Part shown: positions 4,707 to 12,840 of the stretch, piece after piece
Layout of the letters: each line of letters begins with the position of its first letter
How positions within the stretch are numbered: position 1 is the stretch's first letter
Virus record (IMG/VR): IMGVR_UViG_3300020162_002681
Coordinates: 1-64,000 of that record
Strand: one strand, 5' to 3'
Length of the DNA stretch: 64,000 nucleotides
Source of the DNA: a virus
Translations under genes and position numbers: made by a program
Notes under the pieces: generated by a model
The model's input: only the letters and a program-made list of their open reading frames with translations
Told to the model about the DNA's origin: nothing
Database searches by the model: none

Positions 4707-5126
4707 ATGTTAGATGATGGTCTTTTTGAATTGCCACTAGAGGAAAGGATTGCGGTAATACGCGAAGCTAAGCCTATAGTAAAGTTCCCAAAAACTCCTA
4801 AATTCCCTCGATTTGGAATTACGATACAAAATTCACCAGAAGAGGTGGAAAAATATGCCGAAGCTCTCTTAAAATATGCTGAATTACGACGAAACTTTCT
4901 TTCGGATTACGAGGCAGCTAATATTGCTTACGAAGCTGCAAAACCTCTGAGCGCTTCTATAGAGAAGCAGGTAACTGATTTGATTTTCAATGATGTAGGT
5001 CTAGCACAACTTGGATTGCCAGAAAAGACAGTTGCAAAGCTCTGGAAAAAGGCTTGGGACGATGCTAACAACGAAAATGAAGCTATTAGCAATTTGCGTG
5101 AACTTGTAGAACTTTTCGAGGAATAA
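4707..5126 (+). CDS. Hypothetical helical protein
   Basis: 139 residues, mostly helical, rich in Ala, Glu and Lys, with a proline-rich stretch (VKFPKTPKFPRFG) near residue 30. It begins 3 bases after the nuclease gene and is followed after 1 base by the next gene, so they are probably co-transcribed. No family is recognised. Confidence 0.55.
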   Translation: MLDDGLFELPLEERIAVIREAKPIVKFPKTPKFPRFGITIQNSPEEVEKYAEALLKYAELRRNFLSDYEAANIAYEAAKPLSASIEKQVTDLIFNDVGLAQLGLPEKTVAKLWKKAWDDANNENEAISNLRELVELFEE

Positions 5127-5515: not shown

Positions 5516-5684
5516 TGCTATGGAATTGTTTGACGAACTTGAAAAATCTCTGAAAGGATTAGAGCCTTGGGAGAAAGAACGTATCGAAGTCAAGTTTTTA
5601 TCTTTGCCCGAAGTCTGTAGTCTTTTATTGCTTGATAGAACTAAAGAGCTTTTGATTGTTAACACTTACTTGCCTAGAGACTAA
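5505..5684 (+). CDS. Hypothetical small protein
   Basis: 59 residues from the ATG at 5505, which overlaps the preceding gene by 11 bases and begins MKNNAMELFDEL. A longer frame from 5481 exists but would run deeper into the previous gene. Amphipathic helices, no family. Last gene before the RNA-rich island. Confidence 0.5.
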   Translation: MKNNAMELFDELEKSLKGLEPWEKERIEVKFLSLPEVCSLLLLDRTKELLIVNTYLPRD

Positions 5685-5689
5685 ATATC

Positions 5690-6254
5690 TCTTCCGATAG
5701 AGGCGCAGAAAAATAAGTTGGGTTATAGTAATTAAGTAAGGGAGATACAGTTGCAGATGGAACCTCTGCTCGGTCAATGAATATTGATTGATGGCGCAAC
5801 ATAAACTTTAAGACGCGCTCCCACGATGAATTTTAGCAAGTACGGAGGTGACTCTTCAAATACAAGCTAAACAACACTGGATATTCAGGAAATAGTCAAT
5901 ACCTGATTTGTGGGTTCGTTCCTGCTAACCCTAGCCGCAACTTGTGGGACTTTTTTAGGACAGCAAGCTCTGAGAGTTAGGTCTAGGACAGGGCTATCCA
6001 GCAACAAACGTTTCAGAGGGTATCGTAAACCCTCCTCCCACTCCAAGGTGGTTAATGTCTGTGTAAAAACAGATTGAAAGACAACCATCTTTCTTAAATT
6101 AATTAGGTCATTGAGATTCTACTTGGTACAAACGTACAGATGCTTCTCCAGTCTGTACCACTTTAAATTTAAGTTGTTAAATGTTGCGTAATGGCAAGAC
6201 ATCTTAGTAGAATTGACCGAGGAGACTTACAACTAGCGATAGGATTATATCTAA
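5690..6254 (+). ncRNA. Structured non-coding region before isrB-like gene: candidate omega RNA (HEARO class)
   Basis: There is no convincing gene in 565 bases directly upstream of the IsrB-like gene. The second half contains several stable hairpins: GAGGGT/ACCCTC (6016-6034), GGTGGTT/AACCATC (6047-6089, one G-U, with a nested GTCT/AGAC or CTGT/ACAG helix) and GTACAGA/TCTGTAC (6134-6158). IscB/IsrB genes are known to be preceded by a guide-bearing RNA, first described as HEARO, that ends close to the start codon. Placement and structure fit that class. The guide segment and exact ends cannot be set from one sequence. Confidence 0.6.
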
Positions 6255-7343
6255 ATGCAAAATCAAGTTCGAGTTCCAGTATTAAACGTTGATGGTCAGC
6301 CTATTATGCCCACTAAGGCAAGTAGAGCGAGACGTTGGTTGAGAGATGGTAAAGCTAAAGTCGTTCATAATGATTTAGGTGTATTTCAAATCCAACTATT
6401 ACAAGAAGCCTCTGGTACGGAGCAGCAAGATATTGTTGTCGGGATTGACCAAGGTAAGCTTTTTACAGGGATGGCTGTACAGAGCAGTAAAAATACGCTA
6501 TTGATGCTACATCTTGAATTACCCTTTCTTATTGTTAAGAAGCGTATGGAGCAACGCGCAATGATGCGTAGAAACCGTAGGCACAGAAGAATTAACAGAA
6601 GTTTAACTTTTAATCTGCGTAACCACAGACAAAGAAGGAATGATAACCGTAAACAAAAAGATTTTCTACCTCCATCAATACAAGCTAATAAAAAACTAGA
6701 ACAAAGAGTGGTAACTGAACTACTCAAAGTATTCCCAGTCTCCAGCTTTGTTTTTGAACTAGTTAAGGCTAAAGGAAATTCTAGTTTCAGTCCTGTTATG
6801 CAAGGTCAATTACGACAAGTTTCTTGGCTACAGACGCTACTACCTACAGAGACTATATTTGGTTGGAAAACTTCTATCCTACGAGATAAGTTAGGTCTTG
6901 TAAAAAACAAAACTAATAAATCACTTCGAGAACCAGCTACTCATGCAATTGATGGTGTCGCTCTTGCTTGTCACTACTTCATTAAATATGTTGAAGACAA
7001 AGTTAATCAATGTTCGGATTGGTTTGGTGAAGTTGTAACTACTAAATCTCAATTTGCAGTTGTAAGAAGACCTAACTATTTCAGAAGACAGCTACATCAT
7101 TTACAAACATCTAAAAACGGTAAATTGTTACGGTTTGGCGGTTCTATAATGATTGGAGGTTTTAGGAAAGGTGATTTAATTAAGTATAGTTCCAAGAGAA
7201 GAGAAGCGGTAGGATATTGTTCGGGTTTTTGTGGTAACAAAGTGTCTATTAGTAACTCTAATTGGGTGACTACAGACAAAGTATCGTACAAAAAATGTGA
7301 ACTTTTATCTCGCTCTTGTAATTTGCTAGTCAGTGTTGTATAA
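6255..7343 (+). CDS. isrB: IsrB-like RNA-guided nickase (RRXRR/RuvC protein without HNH)
   Basis: 362 residues. The N-terminal PLMP/RRXRR-type region (VPVLNVDGQPIMPTKASRAR) is followed by RuvC-I with D65 (GIDQG), an Arg-rich bridge helix (about 95-130), RuvC-II with E168 (FVFELVKAKG) and RuvC-III with H230 and D233 (HAIDG). The C-terminal part has RRPNYFRRQLH, then FGG and GFRKGDLI, as in IscB target-motif-interacting domains. Only about 60 residues separate RuvC-II from RuvC-III, so there is no HNH domain. That and the size fit IsrB, which nicks DNA under RNA guidance, rather than IscB. No transposase gene is next to it. Confidence 0.85.
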   Translation: MQNQVRVPVLNVDGQPIMPTKASRARRWLRDGKAKVVHNDLGVFQIQLLQEASGTEQQDIVVGIDQGKLFTGMAVQSSKNTLLMLHLELPFLIVKKRMEQRAMMRRNRRHRRINRSLTFNLRNHRQRRNDNRKQKDFLPPSIQANKKLEQRVVTELLKVFPVSSFVFELVKAKGNSSFSPVMQGQLRQVSWLQTLLPTETIFGWKTSILRDKLGLVKNKTNKSLREPATHAIDGVALACHYFIKYVEDKVNQCSDWFGEVVTTKSQFAVVRRPNYFRRQLHHLQTSKNGKLLRFGGSIMIGGFRKGDLIKYSSKRREAVGYCSGFCGNKVSISNSNWVTTDKVSYKKCELLSRSCNLLVSVV

Positions 7344-7371
7344 TATTTTTAAACCAAGGTGTAGGTGCATA

Positions 7372-7611
7372 TCAGCACAAAGCTCGGAACTCTTCGGCAA
7401 ATTCCTTAATTTTTCTGGTTATGAGTGTCACAGAAAATGACGGGGCAAGCAAGTTCTGCATCAAGCGTCGAAAAGTGGAGGCAGTCATGAGCCTTTGGTT
7501 AGTAGTGTCAGTCAGGATTGCAATCTTGCCACTTGGTTTTACATCTCCCATCTCGTAGATAATCTCAAAGAGCGAACAGTTCGGCGCTATAAAGTGGGAG
7601 CGCCATTTCAA
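7372..7611 (-). CDS. Doubtful minus-strand reading frame
   Basis: A 79-residue frame with a TTG start at 7611 and no recognisable ribosome-binding site. The composition is protein-like (TASTFRRLMQNL), so it may be real or a remnant. It lies between the IsrB-like gene and the tRNA-like RNA. No family is recognised. Confidence 0.25.
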   Translation of the reverse strand: MKWRSHFIAPNCSLFEIIYEMGDVKPSGKIAILTDTTNQRLMTASTFRRLMQNLLAPSFSVTLITRKIKEFAEEFRALC

Positions 7612-7614
7612 TTT

Positions 7615-7745
7615 AGGAGAGTGGCGGAATCACTAGACGCTAAGTGCAGAAATGCCTACAGTAGAGACTAGACCTATAAGCGAAGCAGTGGATGGGTTTG
7701 TTCTGTGAAATTAGTCTCATGCAGGTGGAAATCCTGCTTCTCCTT
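7615..7745 (+). ncRNA. tRNA-like RNA lacking an anticodon arm
   Basis: Acceptor stem AGGAGAG (7615-7621) pairs with TTCTCCT (7738-7744; six Watson-Crick pairs and one G-U). TG and a D-arm GCG…CGC (7624-7640) follow as in tRNA-Leu, and the T-arm GCAGG/CCTGC with a 7-base loop abuts the acceptor 3' strand. In place of the 32 or so bases expected between D- and T-arms there are 80. They hold GCA-GAAA-TGC (7646-7655) and a long hairpin GAGACTA/TAGTCTC (7664-7718, extended inside by ACCTAT/ATGGGT). No anticodon stem-loop can be drawn and no CCA is encoded. Confidence 0.6.
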
Positions 7746-7756
7746 TTGCGCGAATT

Positions 7757-7821
7757 TGGGTCACTCCCAGACGGAGGGGTAACAGCCTCTGAAAGTGTTT
7801 GAACACTAGCGCTTCACTTTC
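7757..7821 (+). other. Three hairpins following the tRNA-like RNA
   Basis: TGGG/CCCA (7757-7769), GAGG/CCTC (7774-7789) and GAAAGTG/CACTTTC (7791-7821) follow in a row. They may be the 3' part of the same transcript or a processing and termination region. No T-run follows. The next gene starts at 7840. Confidence 0.4.
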
Positions 7822-12553: not shown

Positions 12554-12583
12554 TAAATACCAATTTTTGTGTTAATATAAAAA

Positions 12584-12840
12584 AGTCACTGAGATTGCTA
12601 GATAACTAGGCTGGATGGGTAGCATAAATCCAATCCTCCACCAATCTAGGGGGATGCCGCAAGGACGTTTCGACAGGTTAGTGATTCTAGCAACACGCTG
12701 GAGTTTTATGAATGAAAGCTAGGCGACACAAAAACAAATGCCAATAACAACATCGTTAAATTTGCCCGTAAGTCTGCCCTTGTAGCTGTTGCAGTTTAAC
12801 CAACCGAAGACCTCGTATACTTAACGGTTGCGGGGTCTTC
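12584..12840 (+). ncRNA. ssrA: Circularly permuted tmRNA (acceptor piece first, then coding piece)
   Basis: The acceptor 3' strand ATCCTCC plus discriminator A and encoded CCA lies at 12633-12643. Only 5 bases later the 5' strand GGGGGAT (12649-12655) starts and pairs with it, giving G1-C72, G2-C71 and the G3-U70 alanine identity pair. A second helix joins the two pieces: TTGCTAGA (12595-12602) with TCTAGCAA (12686-12693), plus ACTA/TAGT. The tmRNA signature GTTTCGACAGG is at 12667-12677. The tag begins at GCC 12740 and reads ANNNIVKFARKSALVAVAV, stop TAA 12797-12799. Right after it, CAACCG/CGGTTG and GAAGACCTCG/CGGGGTCTTC interleave as an H-type pseudoknot (12801-12840). The T-loop is atypical (11 bases). 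Confidence 0.9.

What the first reader, a model, noticed from the sequence alone, without database searches (positions are those of the whole stretch)
7615..7821. tRNA-like RNA without anticodon arm, with swapped D-loop/T-loop contact
Seen: acceptor, D- and T-stems are intact, but the anticodon arm is replaced by GCA-GAAA-TGC plus a long hairpin. Compared with a tRNA-Leu type D-loop (…TTGGTAGA), this has …TCACTAGA, and the T-loop is TGGAAAT instead of TTCAAAT. The usual G19-C56 pair thus becomes C19-G56, a compensatory exchange. This argues for a folded tRNA mimic rather than a decayed tRNA. Possible roles: decoy for tRNA-targeting defences or for RNase P, or a processing handle.
Basis: partly seen in the sequence, partly recalled or inferred. 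Interest (0 to 1): 0.7.

Follow-up and report, generated by a model that had tools for sequence, protein, structure and literature searches.

The report
Rewired tRNA-like domain in phage RNA
Freshwater cyanobacterial viruses carry a long non-coding RNA holding a folded tRNA look-alike that has lost its anticodon arm and re-invented the base pair that holds a tRNA's elbow together, so it cannot decode and probably serves as a structural or processing domain.

Summary
At 7615-7744 (+) a 7-bp acceptor, U8, 3-bp D-stem and 5-bp/7-nt T-arm surround an 80-nt insert (GNRA hairpin plus long hairpin) where an anticodon arm should be. A descriptor scan of both strands finds only this hit; simulated windows give 0.006 per window. 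A relative in another phage (L010:10442-10574) keeps all 33 pairs despite 14 substitutions. Its elbow pair is U19-A56, against C19-G56 here and G19-C56 in ordinary tRNAs, so the swap is compensatory and the fold is constrained.

The element is one cassette in a "slot" near the 3' end of an apparently undescribed, structured ncRNA (about 0.5-1.5 kb) in six related cyanophages (Pseudanabaena phages PA-SR01 and Pam2, three IMG/VR contigs, this one). The slot holds a near-normal tRNA-Leu-like RNA with a non-decoding loop in one relative, two tandem tRNA-likes in another, half an element in PA-SR01, and none in G001. In the window an IsrB/HEARO element interrupts the ncRNA.

Best reading: a non-decoding tRNA-like domain of a phage long ncRNA, analogous to mascRNA on MALAT1, serving as a structural or RNase P/Z processing module. 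The fold is supported by comparison; processing is inferred. The decoy role is untested.

The parts
5684..6050 (+). 5' part of the long phage ncRNA (includes a T-arm-like hairpin GCAGA-TGGAACC-TCTGC inside a GGGAG/CTCCC-closed domain)
   Evidence: 86% identical over two thirds of its length to the intergenic region of PA-SR01; no conserved ORF
6051..6230 (+). HEARO / omega RNA of the inserted element
   Evidence: RF02033, 44.6 bits, E 4e-7 (below the Rfam gathering score of 83)
6255..7343 (+). IsrB-like protein (RRXRR/PLMP region, no HNH found), inserted in the ncRNA; empty site CCAAGGTG|TAGGT intact in the five relatives, CCAAGGTG present at both ends of the insertion
   Evidence: Pfam RRXRR 155 bits, no HNH family; empty sites compared
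7355..7536 (+). conserved structured core of the ncRNA, downstream of the insertion
   Evidence: six-phage alignment A2: 9 of 31 predicted pairs have changes on both sides
7583..7604 (+). conserved hairpin GGCGC...GCGCC just upstream of the tRNA slot
   Evidence: present in window, PA-SR01, Pam2 and L009 at the same place
7615..7744 (+). tRNA-like domain without anticodon arm, elbow pair C19-G56
7615..7621 (+). acceptor stem 5' strand (pairs with 7738-7744, 7/7)
7624..7640 (+). D-arm; position 19 = C at 7633
7646..7655 (+). GCA-GAAA-TGC GNRA-capped hairpin in place of the anticodon arm
   Evidence: invariant in window, PA-SR01 and L010
7664..7718 (+). long hairpin GAGACTA/TAGTCTC with inner helix GACCTAT/ATGGGTT (A-U to G-C compensatory change in L010)
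7721..7737 (+). T-arm; T-loop TGGAAAT, position 56 = G at 7728 (the simple terminator scan flags this hairpin)
7738..7744 (+). acceptor stem 3' strand; N73 = T, no encoded CCA
7747..7813 (+). conserved structured 3' module GCGCGAAT...AGTGTTTGAACACTAGCGC
   Evidence: shared with L009 and L010; 3 of 21 pairs doubly changed

Best explanation
The 7615-7744 sequence is a tRNA(Leu)-derived, non-decoding tRNA-like domain built into a long, structured, phage-encoded ncRNA. It keeps the acceptor/T-arm stack, U8, the D-arm and a D-loop/T-loop elbow. The anticodon arm is replaced by a GNRA hairpin and a long hairpin, and the elbow base pair is rewired (C19-G56 here, U19-A56 in a relative). Supported by comparison: the fold, its constraint, its place in the ncRNA locus, and the modular replacement of tRNA(-like) cassettes in the same slot. 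Inferred: the domain presents a tRNA-shaped acceptor/elbow surface that RNase P (5') and RNase Z (3') of the cyanobacterial host can measure. That would cut or protect the long RNA at this point, much as mascRNA does on MALAT1, and the domain otherwise serves as a stable 3'-proximal structural module. The missing anticodon and N73=U should keep it out of translation and LeuRS charging. The changed 55/56 should keep it from T-loop modification enzymes that act on U55 and C56-containing loops (own knowledge).
For: The cloverleaf descriptor has one hit in the window against 0.006 expected. Window versus L010: 14 substitutions and 3 indels, 0 of 33 pairs broken, 2 doubly compensated pairs (19-56 C-G/U-A; long-hairpin A-U/G-C) and one G-U/G-C change; P(no pair broken)=0.0028, P(none broken and at least 2 double)=1.2e-4 under random placement. 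U54, R57 and A58 are conserved. PA-SR01 keeps the 5' half with C19. The same slot in L009 holds a tRNA-Leu-like RNA with canonical elbow and a 6-nt anticodon loop, and L010 has a second, canonical-elbow tRNA-like without a normal anticodon arm. The surrounding ncRNA is structured with covariation in six phages. The D-arm with A18-Y19 is absent from 84,980 species genomes and is found in one IMG/VR contig only. The elbow presents a stacked base-pair face to RNase P and is recognised by RNase Z (PMC4810234, PMC11693755), so a swapped Watson-Crick pair could still be stacked upon.
Against: Only two full-length copies exist, so the covariation of the tRNA-like rests on one sequence pair. PA-SR01 has lost the 3' half, and G001 lacks the element. 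No transcript or end-mapping data are held, so co-transcription with the core is assumed. RNase P or RNase Z cleavage was not tested. In this phage the ncRNA is interrupted by IsrB, so it may not be fully functional here. RNase P recognition is described for G19-C56 elbows; the swap could weaken it.
Confidence: 0.5

Rival explanations
1. Structural or cargo domain of a GOLLD-like ornate RNA: the tRNA(-like) cassettes are tethered in a linker between a 5' and a 3' structured domain of a self-assembling phage RNA and need no processing.
For: Architecture: large conserved 5'/core domain, tRNA(-like) slot, small conserved 3' module. GOLLD is a phage RNA of often more than 800 nt and unknown function, with phage tRNAs sometimes present in its linker (PMC12286853).
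Against: No match to GOLLD in any of six phage records at this locus nor to any Rfam family other than HEARO and tRNA in the locus. No evidence of oligomerisation. The locus is not in the phages' tRNA cluster.
Confidence: 0.2
2. Decoy or sponge for a host tRNA-directed defence or tRNA-binding enzyme: the body imitates a tRNA but lacks the anticodon that nucleases cut, and the altered elbow avoids host modification or cleavage.
For: Lack of a normal anticodon arm in the tRNA-likes of the slot; altered 18/55 and 19/56 at the modification-rich elbow; hypervariable cassette swapping between phages as expected of an arms race.
Against: No target or defence gene was identified. Many tRNA-directed defence nucleases act at the anticodon (own knowledge), which this RNA lacks, so it would be a poor bait for them. 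The decoy idea predicts a mimicked, not a changed, elbow.
Confidence: 0.15
3. Decaying tRNA-Leu gene that acquired insertions in its anticodon arm; the swap is drift.
For: Leu-type D-arm; near-normal tRNA at the same slot in L009; half-deleted in PA-SR01 and absent in G001.
Against: Decay would break pairs; none of 33 is broken between two copies and two pairs are doubly compensated (P about 1e-4). U54, R57 and A58 are kept. The insert is itself conserved (GNRA hairpin, 7-bp stem).
Confidence: 0.1
4. Part of a self-splicing intron or a tmRNA rather than a tRNA-like domain.
For: GACTA/TAGTC pairing and an AGAGACTAGAC string recall a group I P7 element; permuted tmRNAs do occur in the same phages.
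Against: Group I model: no match even at E 10 in the window record and PA-SR01. No split gene flanks the locus. The possible short ORF in the insert is frame-shifted in L010. The permuted tmRNA is a separate locus at 12582-12799.
Confidence: 0.03

Closest known systems
mascRNA / menRNA, the tRNA-like 3' elements of MALAT1 and MEN-beta
   Same: tRNA-like domain (acceptor, D, T arms, elbow) on a long ncRNA with an altered anticodon-arm region and no decoding role
   Different: Eukaryotic, not homologous; it keeps a canonical G-C elbow pair (C41-G15, PMC11693755); processing is demonstrated there, not here; the phage element is followed by a structured 3' module
GOLLD RNA (RF02032)
   Same: Large structured phage RNA with a conserved domain and tRNAs sometimes in a linker (PMC12286853)
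   Different: No covariance-model match; located away from the tRNA cluster; no oligomer known
Phage-encoded tRNAs (tRNA-Leu)
   Same: Acceptor, U8, Leu-type D-arm and T-arm geometry; L009 has a near-normal one in the same slot
   Different: No anticodon arm, N73=U, elbow C19-G56 with A18/G55 instead of G19-C56 with G18/U55
Plant-virus tRNA-like structures (TYMV type)
   Same: Viral RNA that imitates the tRNA elbow (PMC4810234)
   Different: Those are pseudoknotted 3' ends of RNA genomes; this is a cloverleaf in a DNA phage ncRNA

Membership tests
canonical tRNA (RF00005) | 7-bp acceptor, 5-bp T-stem with 7-nt loop, D-arm, U8 | tested here: met
canonical tRNA (RF00005) | anticodon arm with 7-nt loop | tested here: not met
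   replaced by GCA-GAAA-TGC and a long hairpin; ARAGORN and Rfam negative
canonical tRNA (RF00005) | G18-U55 and G19-C56 elbow | tested here: not met
   A18/G55 and C19-G56 here, U19-A56 in L010
tRNA-like domain of a long ncRNA (mascRNA kind) | tRNA-shaped domain covalently part of a longer structured non-coding RNA | tested here: inconclusive
   The locus is intergenic and structured with covariation in six phages, but co-transcription was not measured
tRNA-like domain of a long ncRNA (mascRNA kind) | cleaved by RNase P and RNase Z | not testable with these tools
   needs in vitro cleavage or RNA end mapping
GOLLD | match to RF02032 (conserved 3' domain) | tested here: not met
   no hit near the locus; best 7.2 bits elsewhere, cut-off 150
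group I intron | catalytic core matched by RF00028, flanking exons | tested here: not met
   no match at E 10; neighbouring ORFs are complete
tmRNA | tRNA-like domain with tag ORF in the same RNA | tested here: not met
   no tmRNA call at the locus; the insert's short ORF is frame-shifted between homologues; the tmRNA-like locus is elsewhere

The most novel reading that the evidence does not exclude
A family of phage long ncRNAs with swappable, non-decoding tRNA-like cassettes whose elbow pair has been re-coded (C19-G56, U19-A56), so that the RNA keeps tRNA shape while escaping proteins that read the G19-C56/U55 elbow: a tRNA mimic with an orthogonal elbow.
Probability: 0.3. Interest if true: 0.85.

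Novelty: new variant of a known kind. Interest (0 to 1): 0.62.

Why it matters
The G19-C56 elbow pair is the near-universal handle by which the ribosome, RNase P, RNase Z, T-boxes and many enzymes recognise tRNA (PMC4810234). A natural RNA that keeps the tRNA fold while covarying this pair gives a ready test of whether those machines read the shape or the letters. It also adds an apparently undescribed long structured ncRNA, carrying tRNA-like cassettes, to cyanophages with two isolated representatives (PA-SR01, Pam2), so it can be studied at the bench.

Tried and rejected
Group I intron: the P7-like GACTA/TAGTC was tested with RF00028 and gave no match. GOLLD: no match. Rfam-wide searches at permissive E-values of the locus in the window, PA-SR01, Pam2 and the three IMG/VR loci: only HEARO, tRNA, tmRNA and chance hits. 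Relatives through the neighbouring protein 4707-5126: none. Over-specific DNA patterns: none. Plasmids: none. Bacterial and archaeal species genomes: none with two patterns. A tag-like ORF in the insert was rejected because L010 has a frame-shifting indel. Intrinsic terminator reading of the T-arm hairpin: rejected because a conserved structured module follows and because L010 lacks a long T tract there. Pairing of C19 with the upstream T-loop-like hairpin (5' domain) instead of the local one: disfavoured, since L010 has U19 and local A56 while its upstream loop keeps G.

Full report
What is there. The window lies in a 146 kb virus record related to the freshwater Pseudanabaena phages PA-SR01 and Pam2. 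The element at 7615-7744 (+) has a 7-bp acceptor stem, U8, a 3-bp D-stem with a Leu-type 11-nt loop, and a 5-bp T-stem with a 7-nt loop that keeps U54, R57 and A58. Between D-arm and T-arm lie 80 nt forming a GNRA-capped hairpin (GCA-GAAA-TGC) and a long hairpin. ARAGORN and Rfam do not report it. A strict descriptor finds only this place in the window on either strand. The same descriptor finds 4 hits in 656 simulated windows, about 0.006 per window, so the architecture is not chance. The descriptor was written after seeing the element, which makes this figure somewhat optimistic.

The elbow. Position 19 is C and position 56 is G. In a homologous element of IMG/VR contig 3300008121_000001 (L010 10442-10574) position 19 is U and position 56 is A. 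The two copies differ by 14 substitutions and 3 indels; none of 33 pairs is broken. Two pairs changed on both sides (19-56, and an A-U to G-C pair in the long hairpin) and one went G-U to G-C. Placing the same substitutions at random breaks no pair in 0.28% of trials, and breaks none with at least two double changes in 0.012%. Both copies have A18 and G55 in place of G18 and U55. The shuffle control has little power with two sequences (126 of 500); the slide control gives 41-49% paired cells against 100%. PA-SR01 carries the 5' half with C19 but has lost the T-arm. Among 14 tRNA genes of these phages found by ARAGORN, 11 have C56 in the T-loop. One is a tRNA-Thr with U56, one tRNA-Gly T-loop was not parsed reliably, and the last is a tRNA-Met in the ncRNA locus of L009 that also has U19-A56. 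A search for the Leu-type D-arm with A18 and a pyrimidine at 19 found nothing in 84,980 species genomes and only L010 in IMG/VR.

The surroundings. The element is not free-standing. It lies in a slot near the 3' end of a long intergenic RNA locus conserved in six phages: the window, PA-SR01 (L002), Pam2 (L006), and L008, L009 and L010 from IMG/VR. The core downstream of the insertion site has 9 doubly changed pairs of 31 over six sequences; the 3' module has 3 of 21 over three. In the window the locus is split by a HEARO RNA and an IsrB-like ORF (RRXRR region, no HNH). The empty site is intact in the five relatives. The slot content varies. Window: the swapped tRNA-like. L009: a 70-nt tRNA-Leu-like RNA with canonical elbow and a 6-nt anticodon loop, then a tRNA-Met. 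L010: the swapped tRNA-like followed by a second, canonical-elbow tRNA-like whose anticodon region is expanded. PA-SR01: half an element, then a hairpin. G001 (L008): none. Pam2: a diverged sequence with a TTCAAAT T-arm. So tRNA-derived, mostly non-decoding cassettes are exchanged at one place in a structured RNA.

How it may work. Supported: the fold, its constraint and its context. Inferred: a tRNA-shaped surface on a long ncRNA is the known device of MALAT1 and MEN-beta, whose mascRNA and menRNA domains direct RNase P and RNase Z (PMC11693755). RNase P stacks on the flat face of the 19-56 pair (PMC4810234), so a C-G or U-A pair may serve as well as G-C. The missing anticodon arm and U at position 73 argue against any role in decoding or leucylation (own knowledge of LeuRS identity). 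G55 removes the uridine that becomes pseudouridine. The main rival is a structural or cargo domain of a GOLLD-like assembly, since GOLLD linkers sometimes carry tRNAs (PMC12286853), but no GOLLD match exists here. A decoy role is possible but has no direct evidence, and a bait without an anticodon arm would miss nucleases that cut there.

Verdict. Its functional suggestions remain open. The element is best called a new variant of a known kind: a tRNA-like domain of a long ncRNA, with a re-coded elbow.

Noticed in passing
L009 5274-5460, L002 5586-5790, L006 7423-7602, L010 12965-13160, L029 886-1095 (absent from the window record): A second RNA locus in the five related phages contains circularly permuted tRNA(Leu)-like sequences: T-arm and 3' acceptor strand, a 5-7 nt loop, then 5' acceptor strand and D-arm, with compensated stems (CGGGAGT/ACTCCCG, GGGCGAG/CTCGCCC, CGGAGAG/TTCTCCG) and, by eye, a further helix joining the two sides (GTTGTGT/ACACAAC, AGAAGTG/CACTTCT). 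0 such in 745 simulated windows. A 29-nt block TGAAATTGAAGTTATTGCTCCAAGTTCAT is identical in all five; it could be part of a tag-like ORF (AQSENEIEVIAPSS) but two phages lack the stop. A second permuted unit (TTCTGCC/GGCAGAA) follows in some. It resembles a tmRNA built on a tRNA-Leu body; one literature search for permuted tRNAs and bacteriophages showed no obvious precedent.
   Followed up: partly
window 12582-12799; G001:119030-119233; G002:134277-134476; L010 13618-13893; PA-SR01 116341-116520 (-); Pam2 110951-111169 (-): Matches to the permuted (two-piece type) tmRNA model in all six phages, over the cut-off in G001 (62.6 bits) and weak in the window (21.5 bits) and Pam2 (17 bits). The window copy reads a cyanobacterial-type tag ANNNIVKFARKSALVAVAV* but seems to have an aberrant, enlarged T-loop.
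   Followed up: partly
L010 13676-13749: A tRNA-Trp(CCA) gene sits inside the intervening segment of the permuted tmRNA, between its two acceptor strands.
   Followed up: no
window 6051-7343: HEARO/IsrB element inserted in the ncRNA; CCAAGGTG present at both ends, empty site CCAAGGTGTAGGT in relatives. The guide and target were not worked out.
   Followed up: partly
L009 3418-3489: tRNA-Met(CAT) in the ncRNA locus with T-loop TTAGAAT and D-loop GACAGTTAA, that is U19-A56 with G18-U55 kept: another non-canonical elbow pair.
   Followed up: partly
window 5684-5850, L002, L010 9560-9680: The 5' domain of the ncRNA contains another T-arm-like hairpin with loop UGGAA(A/C)C inside a GGGAG/CTCCC-closed junction; absent in Pam2, L008 and L009.
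   Followed up: no
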